Origin: Clusia tigrina
Taxonomy: Eukaryota > Arthropoda > Insecta > Diptera > Clusiidae
Assembly (NCBI GenBank): GCA_920105625.2
Contig: OV050030.1
Span: 174,085,315-174,149,314 of the forward strand
Length of the DNA: 64,000 bases
Direction of reading: 5' to 3'
Part shown: piece after piece, positions 49,136-59,890 of the stretch
Layout: every line of letters begins with the position of its first letter
Numbering within the stretch: position 1 is the first letter of the stretch
The notes under the pieces: model-generated
Database searches by the model: none
Told to the model about the DNA's origin: nothing
The model's input: the letters and a program-made list of their open reading frames with translations, nothing else
Position numbers and translations under genes: made by a program

Positions 49136-50018
49136 AGGGGTTTTTGAATAAGAGCGCTACAAAAGTTTTTTTAAATAAAACAAAACCGGTTTTAGATATC
49201 AATGAAGTTCTTTATTCCTGTGAAAGTACGTTCGATGCCATTATGTATGGAACTCGATTTGTTTTGCATGGCCACCACGGGCACGCTTGCAGAAGTCCAG
49301 ACGCTGAACCCAATTTTCAACGGTTTTCAAGCATAAATCGGCCGATACTGCTGCAATTTCACGTTCGATATTCGTACGAAGTTCATCAATCGTCGCTGGC
49401 TTGTTGGCATAGACCATAGACTTGACGTAGCCCCACAGGAAATAATCTAACGGCGTCAAATCGCACGACCGAGGCGGCCAATCGACTGGGCCATTTCGTG
49501 AGATAAAACGTTCACCAAACTTGGTTTGCAGTAAATTGGTTGTGGCATTCGCTGTGTGGCTTGTGGCGCCGTCCTGTTGGAACCACATGTCCTCCAAGTC
49601 CATATTATCCAATTGGGGACAAAAATATTCGGTTATCATTGAATGGTAGCGATTCGCATTCACAGTTATGTGCCGGTCTTGATCATCAGGGAAGAAGTAC
49701 GGCCCAATGACGCCGCCGGCCCATAAACCGCACCAAACCGTAATTTCTTCGGGATGCAATGATGACTCATTGACGAAGCCATTCAGCCAGAAATGAGATT
49801 CATCATAAATTGGACGTAGCGCTCGTAAAGTTGAGGCGACTGACTCCGAATTTTGGTAATAAATATTAATAATTTCGACTAGTTGTTGGCTCGTAAATCT
49901 TTGTGTAATGAAATGGCAAACCTTACTGAAGAGAAATGTCAAAAGAGCGGGAAAAAATATGGCGTCGTTTCCTGTTACTATCGATTTACTTTTGTAGCGT
50001 TTCTTTTGAAAAACCCTT
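49136..50018 (-). mobile_element. DD41D-type mariner (right copy)
   Basis: 883 bp, inverted twin of 18209-19091 with TA on both sides (49134-49135 and 50019-50020). The twins share the insertion site, the internal deletion and the lack of an ATG start, so they arose by duplication of DNA and not by two transpositions. Confidence 0.92.
49241..49942 (-). pseudogene. DD41D mariner transposase with internal deletion (right copy)
   Basis: 233 codons without ATG, as in the left copy, and with the same fused ALRPIYDESHFWLNGF junction. Four residues differ: YYQNSES and STLRALRP against YYRNSES and SALRALRP, ELRTNIE against ELHTNIE, and KQIEFHT against KQIQFHT. The catalytic boxes YDESHF, FQQDGATSH and CDLTPLDYFLWG are all present. 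Confidence 0.85.
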
Positions 50019-50050
50019 TATATAAATAAAACAGGATGTGTGTATGTATG

Positions 50051-52090
50051 GATCCATCCCAATACTATCATAGAGTCTGTCCAAAAGAAGGTGTTAGCAT
50101 AGTCAATTTCATAATATAGATTTTGCTTTAACCATTTGAAAAACCTTGCTGCTAAAAGTGCGGCACACAGCTCTGCTCGAGGAATAGTCAGCTTCGGTTG
50201 CAATGGGGCTACCTGACATTTCGCTGTCAGTAGATTGGTATGATAATTGCCTTGGCTATCTTGCAATCGGAAGTAAGCTGTCGCAGCGAATGCATGCATG
50301 GACGCGTCGCAAAACAGATGGAGACTGGCCGGAGCACTCTCATGAATGGTTCCCAACCAGCGTAGTATTTGAATATCCATAATAACTGAATAGCATTCAG
50401 TTCGAGGAAATATTTATTCCATGTGGACTGAATTGTTGGTGACACGAGTTTATCCCAAGTTATATTGAGCGACCACAATTGTTGCATAATTAACGTCGTT
50501 TTGACGACGATAGCACTTAACCAACCCATCGGATCGAACAGACGTGTGATCGTAGATAAAATTATACGTTTCGTAGCAGGGCCAAGGGGAGTTGGAAATT
50601 AATGCTGAATGTGAATTCATCAGTCGATGGATTCTAATGCATTCCTAACGTCTTTAATGTTTCGTTTGAATTTAATTGCAACCATCCTTTCGTTTCACGA
50701 TGTTCAGGTCGAATGTTTCCCAGCAATTGAAAGTTGTTGCTTGCCCATTTACGTAGCGTAAAAGTATCAGTTCTTAGCATTCCAATTAACTGAGTTTGAC
50801 TTTCAACTGCTTGATCTGTCGAATATCCTCCATATAAAACGTCATCAACGTACTCGTAGGTTTGTTGTTTAACTGCAGATACAGCCAGAGAAAAATTATG
50901 GGCCTCGTCGTCAGCCAGTTGATGCTTCGTGCGGATGGCGGCATACGGAGCTGAACGCGTACCGAACATGACGGTTGAGCAATAATACTCACGGATATTT
51001 CCCGATGGATCATTACGCCATAGAATTCTTTGGTATTGAGCGTCTTCGTCATTCAAATTAATGCAAAAAACATTTTTTCAACATCTGCCATGAAAGCGTA
51101 TTTGAAAAAACGCCAGTTTGTTAGTACAGCTGAAAGAAGATCAGTTTGAAGTGCAGGACCGATAGCCAAGATGTCATTCAGCGACTTTCAGTTTGTTGTT
51201 TTTGTTGATGCATCGAATACGACACGAACCTTCGTGGTCGTACTCGACTCCTTTGTGATAGCATGATGAGGTAGATATCAGCAATTGTAGAAGGTGCGAG
51301 TAGGTTCCGATATTTTGTGCTTTCATTCAGGAGAGGTCACAAGTTTCATCTGGCCAAGTTGAAGATACTCGTCGATAGTGTCCTGGTAGATTTTCTGCAA
51401 AACCCGATCCTGAGTCAGCCGGCGCTCAAGATGAAGAAACCGTTTTAAAGTCAAATGTTGCGATGTGCCGATGACACTGGATAGGTTCAGACTTGATAAA
51501 ATTGGTAGACGTACCACGTATTTGCCATTTTGCAGCCGCTGATAAGTTTTCTTGTAAAAGTTATCGCACCATGTGTTTTGATTGGTTTCGACGTTATCGG
51601 TGGGCAACTTTTCCAGCTCCCAAAACCTGCGTAGCAGATTGTCAGTCTCAACATGAGTGTGCGCAGCCGTTACCGTTGAAAATGGCAGAAATTTTCCAGA
51701 TACTATATAACCCAACGTCGTCCGTTGCGCAATGGGTTGTCCAAGAGCTGTGCGCTGAATGTCATCACGAATAAGTTCGTCGTAAACATCGTTGCCGAGC
51801 AGGAGATCGATGGATTGCGGCTCAAAATAGTTCGGATCAGCGAGATCAATCCCTGTGAGGTAGGGTGCTGTTCTGCGGGCAGATGTCGATGCGGCATAAT
51901 TTGACCAACCTTTGGCAAAACACACGTTAGCACCTCATGAGAAATTTTTTCATCGTAGCGGGATCCGATGATGACATTAACATATGAGCGGCTGCTGGCA
52001 ACCTTCATATCTGCTAATCCGACTATGTTGATGGCAGTCCTCCCTCGAGGTAATCGTTGTTATTGGTCCTTGTGAACCTTGGTCCAAAAA
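50051..52090 (-). pseudogene. BEL/Pao pol (protease, RT, RNase H start)
   Basis: On the minus strand the protease motif EFLDQGSQ (about 52060) is followed by INIVGLADMKVAS and VNVIIGSRYDEKISHEVLTC. The frame 51925-51323 has IDLLLGNDVYDELI and RTTLGYIVSGKF, then GKYVVRLPILSSLN, the BEL protease-RT linker. RT shows STVMFGTRSAPYAAIRTKHQ and the active site YEYVDDVLYGG (51056-50634). RNase H begins at PASLHLFCDASMHAFAATAY and reaches FFWTDSMIVLGWI, where the element is cut. Frameshifts lie near 51930, 51300, 51060 and 50600. Confidence 0.88.
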
Positions 52091-52102
52091 TTCGCTTCGT
52101 TT

Positions 52103-53120
52103 TTATATATCAGTATTGGCGTTTGATACATGGCTTGATGTGCCTGTCGTTAAATGTGATGTTGTTGTAGCTCTTGCGGCATCCATATTAGAATTAATAA
52201 GTGTGTGGTGCTTCCCGCCAAAAGTTAAGCAACTTCTGCGGCTACTGCATTTAGACTCAATATGCGAATATCCTAGGCAATTGAAACATAAATTATGCTT
52301 TCCAACCGACTCTCTTCTTTCAGATACACTCATACGGAGAAATAGTTGACATTCACGTACTGGATGGTTAGCCTTTTCCCAGATTGGGCACATTATTTCT
52401 TGCTTCAGAATCTGATAAGATTGGCGAGTTGTAGGTTTAGGACGATTATTTTGATTACGGGACCCTTGGGCTTATGGCTGTTTCGAAGTCACTTGCGATA
52501 CATTTGAAGTAACTAGCATTTGATGATACTCGTCCAAAAATTCACACAATTTTTCAAAATTCGGAATATCCTTGCTTTTCCGCAATGTGCGATTCCGTTC
52601 AGTGTGCATGGTCAAACAAACTTGTTTCAATAAGTAATAGACGAGGATTTCATTTTGTTTGTCTACACTGATTCCGAGTTTTTCGATGGAACTGATACAC
52701 GACCTGCATGTTTGAGTGAACAGTTTTGTCGATGCAGGATCCTCGCGAGCTGAAAGTGATTGCTGGGAGAGCACATCCATGTAGTGCGTGAATAAAATTA
52801 TTTTGTTTTCGTAGGTATTGTTCAGCATTTCCCATGCGGTTTGATAATTTTCTTCCACAAGACTAAGATGTTGTATGTCTTGCTCAGCACTTTCAGTCAA
52901 AGATTTTTTTATATATTGGAACCGTTGAACATCAGACAAAGTGGTGCACTCAACACAGAAATACTTCCTTGAAGGCAGGCCATTCGATATAACTTCCATT
53001 GAAACTTGGAAGCTTCACTTCAGGTAATGGTAGCTCTTTACAAGAGATGGCAGCTGAGGTTTCGCTAAACGTTGACCCTGAGGAAGTTGCAGCAGATGTT
53101 ACTGGTTGAGGGGGCAAGCA
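52103..53120 (-). pseudogene. BEL/Pao gag
   Basis: The start reads LPLPEVKLPSFNGSYIEWPA (about 53030), a conserved BEL gag entry. A frameshift leads into CTTLSDVQRFQYIKKSLTES (52999-52472), typical of the DUF1759 region. The nucleocapsid has zinc-finger-like cysteines in CPIWEKANHPVREC and CFNCLGYSHIESKCSSRRSC (52393-52103); one Cys-to-Phe-like change is seen in LTFGGKHHTL. In the family this protein assembles particles around the RNA. Confidence 0.85.
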
Positions 53121-53163
53121 ATGACATATGCGTTGCGAATAGTTGACACGACATAGATATATT

Positions 53164-53206
53164 CGCTCTCACGCCGCTAAATTAATTAATTGAGCCCATC
53201 TTTACA
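53164..53206 (+). repeat. 5' LTR remnant (last 43 bp)
   Basis: GCTCTCACGCCGCTAAATTA then ATTAATTGAGCCCATCTTTA and CA match the end of the 3' LTR (56793-56836). The rest of the 5' LTR is missing, because the BEL element abuts at about 53130-53160. Confidence 0.8.
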
Positions 53207-53220
53207 TGGCGATCCTGCCA
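53207..53220 (+). promoter_or_regulatory. Primer-binding site
   Basis: TGGCGATCCTGCCA starts directly after the CA end of the LTR remnant. It is complementary to a tRNA 3' end ending in CCA. The sequence resembles an arginine tRNA acceptor/T-arm end, but the tRNA is not certain. An imperfect repeat of it (CAATCCTGCCAAACTGGCA) follows at 53238-53256. Confidence 0.65.
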
Positions 53221-53319
53221 AACTGGCAATTCTCTAGTCAATCCTGCCAAACTGGCACTTTATTAAAAACCCAAAAACTTTAAACAATCCTAAAATAATC
53301 CTAAAACTGCAGTAAGAAG

Positions 53320-53397
53320 ATGAGTACCGATTTCCACCGACTGTTCGAAAAATTTCAACAACTGGCAGAGCAACACATCCAGAAGGAAGACTCCTAG
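53320..53397 (+). CDS. Short gag-start stub (25 aa)
   Basis: ATG at 53320, then MSTDFHRLFEKFQQLAEQHI and QKEDS, stop TAG at 53395-53397. It stands where gag should start after the leader, and looks like a truncated helical gag N-terminus. The host-like sequence appears to begin right at or after the stop. It may act as an upstream ORF to the gene at 53470. Confidence 0.45.
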   Translation: MSTDFHRLFEKFQQLAEQHIQKEDS

Positions 53398-53469
53398 CTA
53401 CAATCTCACACCCACTTCAAAAAAAGGCAGTAATAAGACAACATAAAATCGACCAAAGTAGTTTTCAAA

Positions 53470-53844
53470 ATGCAGTGCAGTCCCAAAAAACTGAATATTT
53501 GTGAGCGCTTACCGAACCAACAAAATTTACGCGTCAATTTTAATGAGAGAAGTTCCGAAGGTAAGAAGCGACAGAAGAAGTTCCTAACCGCCAAATATGG
53601 TTTCCATCAGATGAGTGTAATACGAAAGAGACTGGCTTTGGAGATGTGGCTGTATGATGTAGTGCAGAAACTCTTTGATCCACCGGGCGAGGCCATCGAC
53701 GTAGACAACGATGAAATTTTAGATATGGACACAGATGACATAAGAATATCTCATGTCATTAAATTATTGTCAGTCTGTAAACGACCACAATCGGAAATAT
53801 CGAAATTTAGCAGTGACCTTTTGGAGCGTGCTAAAACGCTGTAA
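53470..53844 (+). CDS. PPP1R14/CPI-17-like protein phosphatase 1 inhibitor (124 aa, intact)
   Basis: Complete ORF from ATG (AAA before it, a favourable fly context) to TAA. The PHIN-domain features of the PP1 inhibitors CPI-17/PHI-1 are readable. They are a basic stretch KKRQKK (residues 32-37), FLTAKY with Thr40 at the place of the activating phospho-threonine, RKRLALEMWLYDVVQKLFD (52-70), and an acidic segment DVDNDEILDMDTDD (77-90) where the family has LLDM-S-D. The last part is VIKLLSVCKRPQSEISKFSS and DLLERAKTL. The family blocks PP1 catalytic subunits when phosphorylated, in the cytosol. The ORF has no intron, and it is the only cellular gene in the window. It lies between pieces of one LTR element on the same strand. 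Identity as a family member is fairly sure; whether it is the parent gene or a captured cDNA is not. Confidence 0.75.
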   Translation: MQCSPKKLNICERLPNQQNLRVNFNERSSEGKKRQKKFLTAKYGFHQMSVIRKRLALEMWLYDVVQKLFDPPGEAIDVDNDEILDMDTDDIRISHVIKLLSVCKRPQSEISKFSSDLLERAKTL

Positions 53845-53907
53845 ACATTTAAAACTATTTTTTGTATCTCATTTTCTTAAACTATTTTTGTATTTAATAT
53901 AAAAAAA

Positions 53908-53939
<32 letters not shown>

Positions 53940-54495
53940 CTTTGACTTTAATTGTAAATGTTTATAAATTAAAAAAAAATAATAACAAATGAAATGGTTA
54001 TAATTTTAGCTTTGCATAATTTTGTCTTTAGAAACAGAGTAAGCGAAACTTCTTAAGCAACTTAATACATTTAAATATTAGTTAAGAATCTTTAATATTT
54101 TTATATACCTATACATACGTGACTTTTAATTTAATTTAAAGACCATATATAATATAAATGTTATTATTATAAATATATTAATACGGAACAGAAACTAATT
54201 GATAATTCATATGTAATGGAGAAACATTAAACAAAAGCATTAGGAAACCAAGAAAAATTATAAAATTTATTGCAAAATGTTGCAAAAACAACAACAAAAT
54301 TTTGTTATGTAAAATCGCAGATTAAAATGAATTAATTTTAATAGAAAATTCACAAAAACAAAATTTTACATTTAAGTTTTGAAAAGAAAATATGTGTAGT
54401 TAAACCAGTAATTGAAAAGAAATTTTAGCAATTTTATATAGTCAAAAAGTTTACAGTTGCCACTAACCATTAGTATCACTTTTTACAATGACAAG
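53845..54495 (+). other. 3'-UTR-like AT-rich stretch after the PP1-inhibitor gene
   Basis: 650 bp of A/T-rich sequence without ORF, with (TA)n at 53915-53938 and A-runs. It does not look like pol. It would fit the 3' UTR of the captured transcript. No AATAAA near a poly(A) run marks its end. Pol text restarts at about 54495 (FDFDILQRGKSNTNADALS). Confidence 0.55.
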
Positions 54496-55031
54496 AATAT
54501 CATTTTGATTTTGACATACTACAAAGAGGAAAATCAAATACCAACGCAGACGCACTTTCCAGAATCAAAATTGATTCAGAAACTTTAAAACAAATGATTC
54601 CTAAAGAAACCGAAAAAAAAGCTAAAAGAACATTAATTATAACAAGGGGAATGGCTGCCAAAAAACATGCAGACCAACAAAAACAAGTAAAATACAAAAC
54701 CCAAGAGAAGTCTGATCAACTTCATATCTGGGACTGTACATCTATTACTGACGTCAGATACATTACAAAATTGAAGTTTGAAAAAGCGAACGATATAAAT
54801 ATGAAGAGTACTCAATTAATCTATGAAAAAGATAAGAATATATTGCGCGTAAGGTACAACGATAATCCACCGAAATCCGTTTCGATTCTGGAGAAGTTGT
54901 CACCTCTTAATACAAAAACTATGCATAGTAGATATAGTGATAACTATACGAAATACGTTTCGATTATGGAGAAGCTAGAAACTGAAATAAAAAAATTAAA
55001 AATCGACGATCGCTATCGAATAAAGATATAA
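54495..55031 (+). pseudogene. Pol fragment: RNase H end and spacer
   Basis: The frame starts within RNase H at FDFDILQRGKSNTNADALSR (54508 on; usual gypsy text is '...GKSNxNADALSR'). It then runs 145 codons through a lysine-rich spacer (ITRGMAAKKHADQQKQVKYK, SILEKL, SIMEKL) to the stop at 55029-55031. The RNase H catalytic aspartates and the whole RT and protease lie outside and are absent. One frame shift after 55031 separates it from integrase. Confidence 0.8.
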
Positions 55032-56180
55032 TTTTTGAAGGTATCCAAAAAGAAGAATTTAAAATTTATTTAACAAGTTGCAAGAACAAATTAAAGAAAA
55101 TCGTTTCGCATACAAGATTATTATATATGAACCCCCTAACAGAATTGAAAACGATATAATAAAATATAAACTAAGAAATGAATACCACAACTCAACACAT
55201 GGAGGACACCTTGGTATAAGAAAAACCACTCTAAAACTAAAACAAAGATATGTGTGGAAAAATATGAGTCGAATGGTGAAAGATTTTATAAAAAACTGTG
55301 ACAAATGCGCACAGAACAAAATAACTAAACATATACACGAAAAAGAAATAATAAAAGACACACCAAACACTAGTTTTGAAGTACTTGAAATAGACACAGT
55401 TGGACCACTAAGAATGTCAGACAGATTCAGATACATACTCACGATACAATGCGAACTGACAAAATTTGTAATAGCACACCCAATAGAAACCAAAGACGCT
55501 AAAACCGTAGCTAAAACAGTAGTAGAACAATGTATCCTAAAATATGGCAATTTTAAGACATTAAAATCAGATAGAGGCACTGAGTTCACAAATGAGCTCA
55601 TGCACAATATTTGCAAATTACTAGATATTAAACAACAATTCTCAACACCATACCATCACCAAACATTAGGATCAGTAGAAAGAAATCACCGCGTATTAAA
55701 TGAATTCATGTTATCTTTTACCAACGACTATGACTGGCACAATTGGATCCCGTTCTATACCTTTGCATATAATACAAACCCCCCCATGTAGACACACAAT
55801 ATACACCTTTTGAGCTTGTATATGGCAAATTACCACACCTCTCAAGTACTGACAGCCAAGAAAATCCAAAAATATACAATATGGATAACTACGCTAACGA
55901 ACTCAGAATTAGATTACATTATTCAATAAAAAATGCAATAGCATTAAGCGAAAAATCGAAACTACAAAAAAGTATTGTAACACAAAAACACATAAACACA
56001 CTAGATTTAAATATAGGAGAAATGGTATTAGTAAGAAATACGAATAGAAAGAAAAACCAAAAACCCTACAATGGTCCTTATAGAGTAATTGAAATTCGGA
56101 ATGTAAATTGTCTATTAGAAATAAAAGGAGAAATAAAAGAACTCCACAAAAACTTATTAAAAAAATATACCCCGTTTTAA
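55032..56180 (+). pseudogene. Gypsy-type integrase, one frameshift
   Basis: The frame 55078-55791 (no ATG) has the zinc motif in EYHNSTHGGHLGI and KNCDKCAQNK. The catalytic core carries EVLEIDTVGPLRM (first Asp), LKSDRGTEFTNEL (second Asp) and LGSVERNHRVLNEF (Glu). It stops at PPM after a run of seven Cs (about 55782-55788), where a one-base change shifts the frame. It continues in 55788-56180 with TPFELVYGKLPHLSSTD, and the GPY/F-type end KPYNGPYRVIEI, stop at 56178. Apart from this slip it looks complete, which suggests recent activity. Confidence 0.88.
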
Positions 56181-56280
56181 AGATAAACAAGTAAAATTTT
56201 AAGTAATTAATATAACATAAATACTTTTATAAAAAAAAAATTTTTTATTTAAACACCAACAAAAAATTTTTTTTCCCAGT

Positions 56281-56290
56281 AGGATAAGGG
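56281..56290 (+). other. Polypurine tract
   Basis: AGGATAAGGG immediately before the TGTAGTG start of the 3' LTR. It is the expected primer site for plus-strand DNA synthesis. Confidence 0.65.
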
Positions 56291-56836
56291 TGTAGTGTAT
56301 GAAAAGCATAATGTATATATATATACCCACAAACGCCAACACCATACGAGGCGTAGGCACATGCAATGTGAGCGGAGACCCAACGTAAGTACATCGAACT
56401 CTCCTATAAGAATGTTTACGTTATAATTCTAATGTTCGATGCCCTCGAACGAATTTACGCTGGCATTGACCGTGATACTTTCCGCTGACATTGCAAAAGC
56501 CCTCTTTATGTATTAAGAACCATATATAAGTATATAAGTCTTAGCACATAAGAAATTAAAAGTATAAATAGCAACAAGATTTGATCAATATATCAGATTC
56601 GATCTGGAAACCAAACCTTTCGTTTCTCATAAAATATTTGGCTGTACTCTAGTAGTCACCGATTGAAATTGTGCGCTAGCTCTCGCGCCGCTAAATAATA
56701 CTTTGAGCCCATCTGTACATAGCGATCATATATTTCGCTTCATACGCAAATATTTGGCTGTACTCTAGTAGTCGCCGATTGAAATTCTGCGCTAGCTCTG
56801 GCGCCGCTAAATTAATTAATTGAACCCATCTTTACA
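56291..56836 (+). repeat. 3' LTR with duplicated tail
   Basis: Starts TGTAGTGTATGAAAAGC and ends CATCTTTACA (TG...CA). The last part is duplicated in tandem: ATATTTGGCTGTACTCTAGT begins at 56633 and again at 56750. Each unit runs to a GAxCCCATCTxTACA end (56719 and 56836). After the first unit comes TAGCGATC, which looks like the first bases of the PBS. The LTR may therefore have been extended by copying past its end. Confidence 0.75.
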
Positions 56837-57196: not shown

Positions 57197-58780
57197 TCAA
57201 TGTAACGCAGCTTGATAAACAATTTTTTTTGTTTTCTGTTCCGGTGCATAAATGTACAGAGAAGATGGTTTTCCAACTCGTGAACACGCCACGTATAGCT
57301 GGCCGTGTGAAAAACATGGCATTTCCAGATTTATGCCACACACTTCCAACGACTGTCCTTGTGACCTGTTGATTGTCATCGCAAATGCAAGTTTCACTGG
57401 AAACAGAATACGTTTGAACTGAAATGGCAAATCGTTGGAACTCAAAGGAATTCGTGGAATCAAGCAGTCTGCCCCTTTGTAAGCCCCTTTCAAAATTCTT
57501 GCAACTATCACATTATTCGATAGCTGCATCACAATCAGTCGGGTTCCATTACACAGTTTCGGCGCATGAAGATTACGAAGCATAATAATTACAGATCCAA
57601 CTTTGAGACGCAAATGATGCGGCGGCATGCCAGGCAAATCCAGAGAATTTAGAAATTCCACTGGATAATTCACGGCTTCATCTTCATTTTCAACACGATC
57701 GATCGATTTGTATGAGCGCAAATCTCCCGGAATTTGACATTGAATCGTCCAGTTTAAGTCATTAACATCGGTATTTTTGGCAGCTAAAAGTGCGCGTGCA
57801 CTCACCCAATCGTAGTTACGATAATTTTGGCCAATGTTCATATAAACATTCGTGATGAGTTCAGCTTCCGTTGAAGTGAATTGACAAATGGCAGGTGGAA
57901 TTGATATCAAACCACTGGAAGTATCAACCGGAATTTGCCCATTTGCAATTCTTAGCAGTTCTTTAGAGAAAAATTCTGCGGTTCTATCCTGTTGCAGGAA
58001 CACTCGCATATTCATAGTCAATCGAATGGTTTTCACGTACCGCCACAAATACGATGACTTGAGACATGCGTTCAATTCATCCGCCGCTGTTGATTTCGGA
58101 ATAACAGGAAGTGTTTGTCGAAAATCGCCTGCTACCATTATCATTGCGCCACTAAAGCGACGATTATTATTCCGCAGATCTATCATTGTTCTGTCAAGTG
58201 CTTCTAGAGACCGTTTGTGAGCCATTGTGCACTCATCCCATATTATCAGTTTACAATTCTTCAACACTTTTGCCATAGCTGATTGCTTTGAAATGTTGCA
58301 AACAGGTGTTTCATTGATTTGCATGTTTAACGGATGCTTCAGTGCCGAATGTGCCTTTCTTCCACCTTCTAATAGAGTTGCAGCAATCCCAGTAGATGCG
58401 AGAGCCAACGCAATGCCATTTTGAGATCGTATTGTTGCCAAAATCAATGATATCAGGAACGTTTTCCCAGTTCCGCCGGGTGCATCAAGAAAAAATAGTC
58501 AACGGTTTCCATCATTGACAGCCTTCTCAATTCATCATACGCACTCTTTTGCTGCCCATTCAATAATGGAACATTTCTTTGTACTTGTTGTTCCAAAATT
58601 ATTCTATCGTATGCACGCTCACGTTCCAATTCACGATTCAGTACATCACTGATATGACGATTTGGCGTTTGCATATGAGTTTCAGTCAATTGTTTGCCAC
58701 TCATAAGCAAACACAAATCTTCAATCAACACAAATGCTTCATTGTAGATGTCATCATTCATTTGCAATGTCTTCGGCAAT
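57197..58780 (-). pseudogene. Helitron-3 PIF1-like helicase (one frameshift at Walker A)
   Basis: The Walker A loop APGGTGKTFL is encoded at 58452-58485, but a one-base slip in the preceding T run (TVDYFFL) puts it out of frame with 58779-58453. The main frame, 58447-57197, reads LATIRSQNGIALALASTGIA, the Walker B box KLIIWDECTM, IMVAGDFRQTLPVIP, IRLTMNMRV and RILFPVKLAFAMTINRSQGQ. It ends with FSHGQLYVACSRVGKPSSLY; 416 codons are open. In the family it unwinds DNA during rolling-circle transposition. Confidence 0.9.
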
Positions 58781-59890
58781 GCAATTTTTGTACGTATCCC
58801 ATAATTGATGGGGATTTGAACGCTGACATGTCGAAATGATCATCGCGAAAAGTGTGCGAACTTCAGTGGCATGCGAAGTAGCTATCGCATCGTCCATCGT
58901 TTGATTCCAGTGATTATCATGTTCCAGCAATTGTAATTGCTTCGCAATTAATTCGCAGTACGCAATGACTCAAATGAAGTTGAATCGCGTACATTAATCA
59001 ATAGTAACCGAAGGTAGAAGCACTCGTCGTTTTTCGGGTGGATTGTGTAAATTCGTCGTAATGCATTAGTTGAGAACACACCTGGATGTCCATCTACTGG
59101 TTGGCCTTGCTTTCTGCGTAACCATTTCTTCGACGATGCATTCCATGTATAATATCGAGGCATTTCCGAATAAAGCAATGTTCTCGCAAACGGATCACTG
59201 GCGGAAGTTGAGAAAAAACTCGTCAATGTTGTTGCTGGTGGTGTTTCCGCTCGCTGCACTGCATTCTCTGGGTTGAAATACACTCTTTGGCCATTCTCCA
59301 AATGAACTGCGAGATGCACAACAGTCGGAAAACGCTCATGAGTTACAAAAGAAAATATTCTCCAAAGCGCTTCATTGCAGTTCACGTATCGACCCATTTG
59401 ATACTTTCTGATCTCATCTCGTTCTAGGCCAATAACCGCCATGTCGCTTCCTTTGGTGACGTACTTGCAAACGTATTTGATCGATTTCACAGAACTGCAA
59501 TACTCAACATTGATATGAGTTTTGAATGTCTTAGACAATATTGGCGAATATGGTACGATCCATGTGTTGTCAACTTCGATATTCACTCCTCTAAATTGAA
59601 TGCTGAATGTTCTGCCATTGTTGTCTGATGAGCGACGCCGATAGAGTGGATATCCATCATTTCCAGTTTGCGTTTCCGAAAGAAAAGCACGTGGATAGTG
59701 TTTCGTGCATTTATTGTCAGACATAGAAACCGAAGTGGGATTGTAGTGTCCGCAAGGTCCATGAACCATATTGGTTTTCACCACTTCGTATAATTCTGGA
59801 TCTATCTCTGGATCAGGAAATTCCGCAGAAATGATGTCATCAATTTGATCTGGTGTAATCTTGTTCACCATCCAAAGAAGAATGTGCGTG
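58781..59890 (-). pseudogene. Helitron-3 Rep nuclease, C-terminal part, and linker
   Basis: The frame 59871-58948 starts at MVNKITPDQIDDIISAEF, preceded by a remnant of the HUH box (THILLW). It contains the CTKHYP and GYPLYRRR blocks, and the tyrosine segment KSIKYVCKYVTKGSDMAV. Then come QMGRYVNCNEALWRIFSF and RRIYTIHPKNDECFYLRLLL. It is the counterpart of Helitron-2 15871-14961. A gap in the frame (about 58780-58948) separates it from the NEAFVLIEDLCLLMSGK part. Confidence 0.85.

What the first reader, a model, noticed from the sequence alone, without database searches (positions are those of the whole stretch)
53164..56836. Possible transduction of a host PP1-inhibitor gene by an LTR retroelement
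Seen: LTR end, PBS and gag stub, then an intact intron-free ORF with PPP1R14/CPI-17 features (LTAKY with Thr40, RKRLALEMW, LDMDTDD), an A/T-rich 3'-UTR-like tail, then the same-strand RNase H end, integrase, PPT and 3' LTR. Gag, protease and RT are missing exactly where the gene sits. Knowledge: oncogenic retroviruses capture host cDNAs in just this way. It is rarely described for insect LTR elements. If real, a phosphatase regulator would be under LTR control and mobile with helper proteins.
Basis: partly seen in the sequence, partly recalled or inferred. Interest (0 to 1): 0.9.

Follow-up and report, generated by a model that had tools for sequence, protein, structure and literature searches.

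The report
Host phosphatase-inhibitor gene hijacked by retrotransposons
In what is probably a fly genome, an intron-free copy of the fly's own PP1-inhibitor gene, likely copied from its messenger RNA, sits inside LTR retrotransposons at many sites and in two different element families, which suggests that mobile elements can pick up a host gene, multiply it and hand it on to each other.

Summary
The ORF at 53470-53844 is a PPP1R14/CPI-17 family gene between an LTR-element leader and its RNase H/integrase. The parent, with four exons, lies at G000:C3:91262-92026; the window ORF lacks all three introns and carries parent 5' and 3' UTR, so it derives from mRNA. Two protein searches list 165 full or partial matches besides the parent exon. 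The cassette (53374-54410) is 87-94% identical between two element backbones whose leader and pol are 48-68% identical; L077 combines one family's leader with the other's LTR and RNase H/spacer. 39 of 84 A-family and 14 of 114 B-family integrase matches have the cassette upstream; some copies without it keep long pol frames. Best reading: one old mRNA capture, likely by template switching, amplification with proteins of relatives, and transfer of the cassette between families by recombination. Protein-level selection is not detectable (pN/pS about 0.7-0.9, as in neutral simulation), so a function is unproven; expression was not testable. Gene capture by LTR elements is a known kind; a complete, amplified, family-hopping cassette in an animal appears to be a new variant.

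The parts
53165..53206 (+). remnant (42 nt) of the 5' LTR
   Evidence: 93% identical to the 3' end of the 3' LTR, 56795-56836
53207..53373 (+). A-family leader with PBS-like site (53207-53219) and start of the first element ORF (ATG 53320)
   Evidence: 81% match of 53206-53389 to a relative without a listed cassette (L082); 48-55% to the leader of the B and B-leader copies aligned
53374..53399 (+). element piece (..HIQKEDS stop), left crossover zone between A and B backbones (about 53374-53389)
   Evidence: shared by A, B and B-leader copies; A-family match ends at 53389
53400..53469 (+). parent-gene 5' UTR
   Evidence: blastn to parent L081 starts at 53400
53470..53844 (+). captured coding sequence, 124 aa, PPP1R14/CPI-17 family, intron-free; former exon joins at 53685/53686, 53760/53761, 53802/53803
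53845..54194 (+). parent-gene 3' UTR with a microsatellite
   Evidence: match to the parent ends at 54194
54195..54410 (+). A/T-rich stretch of unknown origin, part of the cassette (also in B; partly in L084/L085)
   Evidence: no convincing match in 5 kb at the parent; shared by A and B; L084/L085
54411..54522 (+). degenerate RNase H remnant; right crossover zone
   Evidence: reads like IEKE.LAI with losses; A-family identity resumes at 54523
54523..55040 (+). A-family end of RNase H and spacer
   Evidence: 95% to L083, a piece of a relative without a listed cassette
55041..56183 (+). integrase region, frame broken after 55791
   Evidence: Pfam Integrase_H2C2 and rve; ORFs
56281..56290 (+). 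purine tract before the 3' LTR
   Evidence: read directly
56291..56836 (+). 3' LTR, TGTAG...TTTACA, with an internal repeat at 116-nt spacing

Best explanation
A complete coding sequence of the host's PPP1R14-type PP1-inhibitor gene, without its three introns and with parts of both UTRs, lies inside LTR retrotransposons of two families (A and B) in this genome, and was likely captured once from mRNA by template switching during reverse transcription. Shown: the parent with three introns; intron-free copies with parent UTRs; recurring junctions; insertions with the same LTR start and different flanks; near-identical cassettes in two backbones whose leader and pol differ strongly; one clear mosaic (L077); relatives without a listed cassette that keep long pol frames. 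Inferred: (1) capture happened in a B-like backbone, replacing most of gag, protease and RT; (2) the defective element was packaged and integrated with proteins of intact relatives; (3) co-packaging of A and B RNAs and two further template switches, one near the start of the first ORF and one in RNase H, moved the cassette from B to A; (4) family A amplified it recently. The protein, if made, would keep the inhibitory phospho-threonine site, but nothing shows that it is made or useful to the element; the gene may be a passenger.
For: Parent gene: (118 of 124 residues equal to Zeugodacus P0001). Copy number: 150 matches scored of 350 candidates, 151 matches (list cut); the two printed lists together hold 166 places including the parent exon. 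Same order: of 20 fetched stretches 20 have the leader next to the ORF, 18 an LTR upstream, 17 pol sequence downstream (some stretches are neighbours in tandem arrays). LTR starts with at least 13 different flanks among 23 stretches (start motif matched with up to 4 errors). Two backbones, one cassette: (window against L073/L072: leader 52-55%, 5' UTR 87-90%, ORF 88-90%, 3' UTR 92-94%, RNase H end 68%, spacer 48-49%, IN 57-62%; L073 against L072 86-94% in every region). Mosaic: L077 has A-type LTR and RNase H/spacer but B-type leader. Families: 39 of 84 A rows and 14 of 114 B rows have a listed cassette ORF 0.6-3.5 kb upstream. Parent-rooted tree: A copies, B-leader copies and three B copies form one clade (UFboot 100), A nested inside (92, 99). 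One capture: V57L in 22 of 23 and R35Q in 21 of 23 copies.
Against: No microhomology at the original capture joins was tested. The 216 nt at 54195-54410 are unexplained. No target-site duplication was found. Part of the multiplication is by tandem arrays and segmental duplication. Only one mosaic is clean: L075 and L076 have A-type LTR and B-type leader, but their pol beyond the RNase H end is deleted or only 68-74% like A, L075 is 81% and 57% like the window in RNase H end and spacer, and L077 lacks the integrase core, where the forced alignment gives 53%. DNA-level gene conversion could also build mosaics. L086 joins the cassette to RT at another place, with parent 5' UTR starting later, and lacks R35Q, which could mean a second capture; V57L, D10N and G28S argue against it. 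The window itself lacks D77E, which most other copies share.
Confidence: 0.86

Rival explanations
1. An ordinary retrocopy of the gene, made by LINE machinery, fell into an LTR element; later deletion removed gag, protease and RT, and the element then carried it along.
For: L069 is an intron-free copy with no recognised element parts beyond a PBS-like stretch, so free-standing retrocopies of this gene may exist.
Against: In the B copies seen on both sides (L072, L073) the gene lies between the start of the first ORF and RNase H; no poly(A) run stands where parent sequence ends at 54194. Insertion plus deletion at one place needs two events where template switching needs one. L069 shares R35Q and D77E with element copies, so it may itself be an early element copy.
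Confidence: 0.13
2. The captured protein is kept by selection because it helps the element or the host, for example by inhibiting PP1 in the germ line.
For: Open ORF in 37 of 66 sampled copies (sample biased to good protein matches); T40 and Y43 kept in 63 of 63 sampled copies (L045/L069, which has M at 40, and copies with many gaps were left out); the cassette sits in a second family.
Against: pN/pS A-A 0.74, B-B 0.93, A-B 0.73 (bootstrap over codons 0.43-1.39) against neutral medians of 0.82-0.91; 0.46-1.11 against the parent in 15 copies; the 3' UTR is at least as conserved as the ORF; core 37-44 intact in only 45 of 63.
Confidence: 0.15
3. The apparent move between families is DNA-level gene conversion or ectopic recombination between insertions, not template switching.
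For: Copies lie in clusters and tandem arrays, where ectopic exchange is likely.
Against: The same two crossover zones are found in the A copies viewed, at many sites, as expected if the switch was made once in a transposing lineage.
Confidence: 0.2
4. The window copy is a chance neighbourhood of unrelated pieces.
For: The left flank belongs to a BEL/Pao-like element on the other strand.
Against: The arrangement recurs genome-wide.
Confidence: 0.01

Closest known systems
LTR-mediated retroposition in metazoans (Tan et al. 2016; paper not held; known through passages of PMC9674220 and PMC8232201)
   Same: host mRNA joined into an LTR element by template switching; intron-free product flanked by element parts
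   Different: in the passages seen it is described as gene duplication giving retrocopies; here the chimera itself is found at many sites and in two families
Acute transforming retroviruses such as Rous sarcoma virus (recalled, no call)
   Same: a signalling gene captured as cDNA replaces viral genes; replication needs helper proteins
   Different: here an LTR retrotransposon of a fly-like genome, with no sign that the protein is selected
Maize Bs1 (passages of PMC13317346 and PMC7264820)
   Same: LTR element with transduced host gene segments
   Different: Bs1 holds segments of three genes, none full-length; here one complete coding sequence with UTRs in many copies
BARE-2 / Wis-2 chimera in barley (passages of PMC13317346)
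   Same: abnormal template switching swaps parts between LTR families
   Different: there a part of the LTR was swapped; here the swapped part is a captured host gene
Drosophila TART-A carrying nxf2 sequence (abstract and passages of PMC7785250)
   Same: insect retrotransposon with a piece of a host gene, in many copies
   Different: non-LTR element, gene fragment in the UTR, proposed piRNA effect on the host gene
Plutella PxyMasc retrocopies (passages of PMC9674220)
   Same: insect gene cDNA next to LTR-element parts, tandem multicopy clusters, inferred template switch
   Different: partial cDNA acting through silencing RNAs on the W
CPI-17 / PPP1R14 family
   Same: Pfam PP1_inhibitor; Thr40 in the place of CPI-17 Thr38 (numbering of CPI-17 recalled; alignment); best fold match CPI-17
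   Different: about 25% of residues changed from the very similar fly orthologues

Membership tests
PPP1R14 (CPI-17-type PP1 inhibitors) | PF05361 domain above the curated cut-off | tested here: met
   28.2 bits against 22.4
PPP1R14 (CPI-17-type PP1 inhibitors) | inhibitory loop with phosphorylatable Thr (CPI-17 Thr38, recalled) and following Lys-Tyr | tested here: met
   T40, K42, Y43 invariant in the alignments; T40 in 63 of 63 sampled copies
PPP1R14 (CPI-17-type PP1 inhibitors) | CPI-17 fold | tested here: inconclusive
   model pLDDT 77.9; best Foldseek hit 1j2n CPI-17 but E 0.32, probability 0.96, TM 0.54 to the target
PPP1R14 (CPI-17-type PP1 inhibitors) | inhibits PP1 when phosphorylated | not testable with these tools
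   needs an enzyme assay
Ty3/gypsy-type LTR retrotransposon | LTRs TG...CA, PBS, purine tract | tested here: met
   5' LTR nearly absent in the window copy but an LTR lies upstream in 18 of 20 fetched stretches
Ty3/gypsy-type LTR retrotransposon | pol order RT-RNase H-integrase | tested here: met
   RNase H before integrase in window and L073; RT-RNase H frame in L083, read by eye. The clade name is recalled, not tested by a tree
Ty3/gypsy-type LTR retrotransposon | own gag, protease and RT (autonomy) | tested here: not met
   between leader and RNase H the window has only the cassette; therefore filed as non-autonomous
LTR-mediated retroposition / retroviral transduction | intron-free copy of a gene with an intron-bearing parent elsewhere | tested here: met
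LTR-mediated retroposition / retroviral transduction | element sequence on both sides, same strand, with element genes missing in between | tested here: met
LTR-mediated retroposition / retroviral transduction | short shared sequence at the switch points | not tested
   uncaptured B element not aligned across the original joins
LTR-mediated retroposition / retroviral transduction | chimera transposes as a unit | tested here: met
   same LTR start with at least 13 different flanks; eight LTR pairs 93.5-99.7% identical, some from arrays; but no target-site duplication found

The most novel reading that the evidence does not exclude
A host signalling gene has become a shared accessory gene of retrotransposons: a PP1 inhibitor captured once, still encoding an open frame in many copies, that spread from one LTR family to another because carrying it pays the element, either by the protein acting on PP1 in the germ line or by its RNA interfering with silencing or with the parent gene.
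Probability: 0.15. Interest if true: 0.95.

Novelty: new variant of a known kind. Interest (0 to 1): 0.82.

Why it matters
Capture of host cDNA is the textbook route to transforming retroviruses, but in the insect and plant reports seen here it appears as retrocopies or gene fragments. Here the parent, the captured cassette, two carrier families, an intermediate mosaic and likely helper relatives are all present in one genome, so the order of capture, hand-over and amplification can be read from sequence. It offers a natural series for asking how often reverse transcriptases of different families recombine in one particle, and whether a captured regulator is a passenger or is kept.

Tried and rejected
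Single chance arrangement: rejected by recurrence. LINE retrocopy nested in an LTR element: kept as a rival, less economical. One capture followed by plain divergence of one element lineage: rejected, because the non-coding 3' UTR is 92-94% identical between A and B while leader, spacer and integrase are 48-62%. Function shown by purifying selection: not supported. Further carrier families: L084 has RT right after the cassette, but its close relative L085 has a short A-like spacer match instead, so L084 is not counted; L086 has RT 63% identical to A-family L083 and may be a further family or family B joined further upstream, left open. Search for cassette-free A copies by the leader: 40 main rows scored of 166 candidates; 37 have a listed ORF downstream, 3 do not and were not followed; the query end lies in sequence that cassette-free relatives also have, so this search could not tell the two apart. 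They were found through integrase. L082 shows that the relative fetched also lacks its 5' LTR, so it is not an intact copy. Target-site duplications: not found. Integrase homologues in the large protein set gave no family name. Literature searches listed no insect LTR element with a PPP1R14 gene; Tan et al. 2016 is not held. On rereading, the B count was mended from the first 100 rows to all 114 rows at 75% or more, and the mosaics from several to one clear case; the confidence went from 0.88 to 0.86 for that.
Full report
WHAT WAS CHECKED. The finding says that an LTR retroelement holds a host PP1-inhibitor gene where gag, protease and RT should be. Read directly, the window has a 42-nt LTR remnant (53165-53206), a PBS-like TGGCGATCCTGCC at 53207, a short ORF stub (53320-53397; gag by position), an intact 124-aa ORF (53470-53844), an A/T-rich stretch, an RNase H end, an integrase region, a purine tract and a 546-nt 3' LTR (56291-56836). 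The ORF matches Pfam PP1_inhibitor above its cut-off and the integrase matches H2C2 and rve. A predicted model (pLDDT 77.9) has CPI-17 as best fold match, with a weak E-value of 0.32; by sequence the nearest solved structures are CPI-17 too, at E 0.018 and weaker. The labels Ty3/gypsy and BEL/Pao are recalled from the domain order and DUF1759, not tested by trees.

THE PARENT. Fly orthologues of the protein are very alike, while the window ORF is about 75% identical to them. In the window's own genome a match to residues 1-75 at 93% identity lies at G000:C3:91262. The stretch L081 shows four exons (L081 663-878, 951-1025, 1265-1306, 1386-1427) with introns of 72, 239 and 79 nt; the product equals Zeugodacus P0001 in 118 of 124 residues. 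The window ORF lacks all three introns and matches parent 5' UTR from 53400 and parent 3' UTR up to 54194. So the cassette comes from mRNA. Another old copy, L087, matches the joined parent sequence on through about 650 nt of 3' UTR, so the first capture probably held more of it. Nucleotides 54195-54410 have no convincing match in the 5 kb at the parent and stay unexplained.

COPIES. The ORF has 150 scored matches out of 350 first-look candidates; with the search by the fly orthologue (list cut) the two printed lists hold 166 places including the parent exon. These are full and partial matches, not all checked for LTRs. In 20 fetched stretches the leader adjoins the ORF in 20, an LTR lies upstream in 18 and pol sequence downstream in 17; L010-L011 and L015-L017 belong to tandem arrays. 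LTR starts have at least 13 different flanks among 23 stretches examined, as expected for separate insertions; no target-site duplication was found. Eight LTR pairs are 93.5-99.7% identical, some of them from arrays. The window copy has a near-identical partner about 110 kb away that shares the left junction with the BEL/Pao-like element, so one of the two arose by duplication of the locus.

TWO BACKBONES. Older copies (L070-L080) differ from the window outside the cassette. By substitutions only, the window against L073 and L072 is 52-55% in the leader, 87-90% in the 5' UTR, 88-90% in the ORF, 92-94% in the 3' UTR, 68% in the RNase H end, 48-49% in the spacer and 57-62% in integrase; L073 against L072 is 86-94% in every region. 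A non-coding stretch that is much better conserved than integrase is hard to get from one element lineage diverging as a whole. L077 has a B-type leader (88% to L073, 48% to the window), an A-type LTR, and an A-type RNase H end and spacer (97% and 86% to the window); its integrase core is missing and the part after it is A-like. L075 and L076 have A-type LTRs and B-type leaders, but their pol beyond the RNase H end is deleted or only 68-74% like A; L074 and L080 show a B-type leader and an A-type RNase H remnant. B is a family of its own: the integrase piece of L073 finds 114 matches at 75% or more among 150 scored of 10138 candidates, the rest lying at 53-65%. Of these, 14 of 114 have a listed cassette ORF 0.6-3.5 kb upstream, and 39 of the 84 A rows (78% or more to the window integrase) do; the ORF lists are incomplete, so these are lower bounds. 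No listed ORF has both an A and a B integrase downstream (with the first 100 B rows). Some A rows without a listed cassette lie in frames of 683-719 aa without a stop in the match, and one B row in 750 aa. Two pieces of one A relative show the first ORF running on where the window has its cassette, and an RT-RNase H frame where the window has lost it; this copy has no LTR before its leader, so it is not intact itself.

ORDER OF EVENTS. A parent-rooted tree of 5' UTR plus coding sequence, 23 copies, puts L069 first (support there not printed), then L070, L071, L087, L084/L085 and L086, then a clade (UFboot 100) of three B copies, the B-leader copies, L088, L089 and A; A copies are nested (92 and 99). 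V57L is in 22 of 23 copies and R35Q in 21 of 23; D77E is in most, but not in the window. This fits one capture, a long life in a B-like setting, then transfer to A by two crossovers (53374-53389 and 54411-54523) and recent amplification. That the switches happened during reverse transcription in mixed particles is inferred from the known behaviour of LTR elements, not shown.

SELECTION. Counted pairwise, without ancestral sequences, pN/pS is 0.74 among 47 A copies, 0.93 among 8 B, 0.73 between them (bootstrap 0.43-1.39), and 0.75-0.90 in three other comparisons; groups were set partly by the ORF tree. Neutral simulation with the 3' UTR spectrum gives medians of 0.82-0.91. Against the parent the ratio runs from 0.46 to 1.11 in 15 copies. 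37 of 66 sampled copies have no stop, indel or truncation, but the sample was picked by protein match. Simulated neutral copies with 37 changes keep a stop-free frame in 10-23% of runs. Thr40 and Tyr43 are kept in 63 of 63, the core 37-44 in 45 of 63. There is no detectable protein-level selection; a function is neither shown nor excluded.

NOVELTY. Host gene capture by LTR elements is known: Bs1 and others in plants (PMC13317346, passages), LTR-mediated retroposition in animals (cited in PMC9674220 and PMC8232201, passages; the 2016 paper is not held), transforming retroviruses (recalled). In insects, TART-A carries nxf2 sequence (PMC7785250, passages) and Plutella has PxyMasc retrocopies next to LTR parts (PMC9674220, passages). 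The searches listed no insect LTR element carrying a PPP1R14 gene; only open-licence papers are searched. New here, as far as these searches go, are a complete captured coding sequence, its multiplication within LTR elements and its presence in two families.

LIMITS. The organism is inferred to be a fly from the parent protein only.

Noticed in passing
window 50018-53117 (-): BEL/Pao-like element (DUF1759 domain; the label is recalled) next to the 5' LTR remnant of the finding.
   Followed up: partly
G000:C1:174027394-174030765 (L001) and window 53000-55341: Near-identical duplicate of the window locus about 110 kb away, sharing the left junction.
   Followed up: partly
window 57197-59871 (-): ORFs that look like a Helitron-type (Pif1-like) helicase and neighbouring protein; recalled resemblance, not searched.
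   Followed up: no
window 54195-54410: Cassette part of unknown origin, shared by A and B and partly by L084/L085; not found in 5 kb at the parent.
   Followed up: partly
L069 (G000:C3:147416512-147416883 -): Intron-free copy closest to the parent, with a PBS-like TTGGCGATCATGCC and short tandem repeats upstream but no recognised LTR; perhaps an early capture product.
   Followed up: partly
L084, L085, L086: Cassettes with internal deletions of the ORF (88-aa in-frame form in L084/L085), and RT directly downstream in L084 and L086.
   Followed up: partly
G000:C1:365559571-365578160, C2:73674460-73685588, C242:309797-317320, C2:59908328-59915830: Tandem arrays of cassette elements spaced about 3.7 kb.
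   Followed up: partly
G000:C2:59920760, C139:2264270, C1:151452322: A-type leaders without a listed cassette ORF downstream; possible cassette-free copies or lost ORFs.
   Followed up: no
window 56632-56812 and the LTRs of other copies: Internal repeat in the LTR at 116-nt spacing, including its terminal motif.
   Followed up: no
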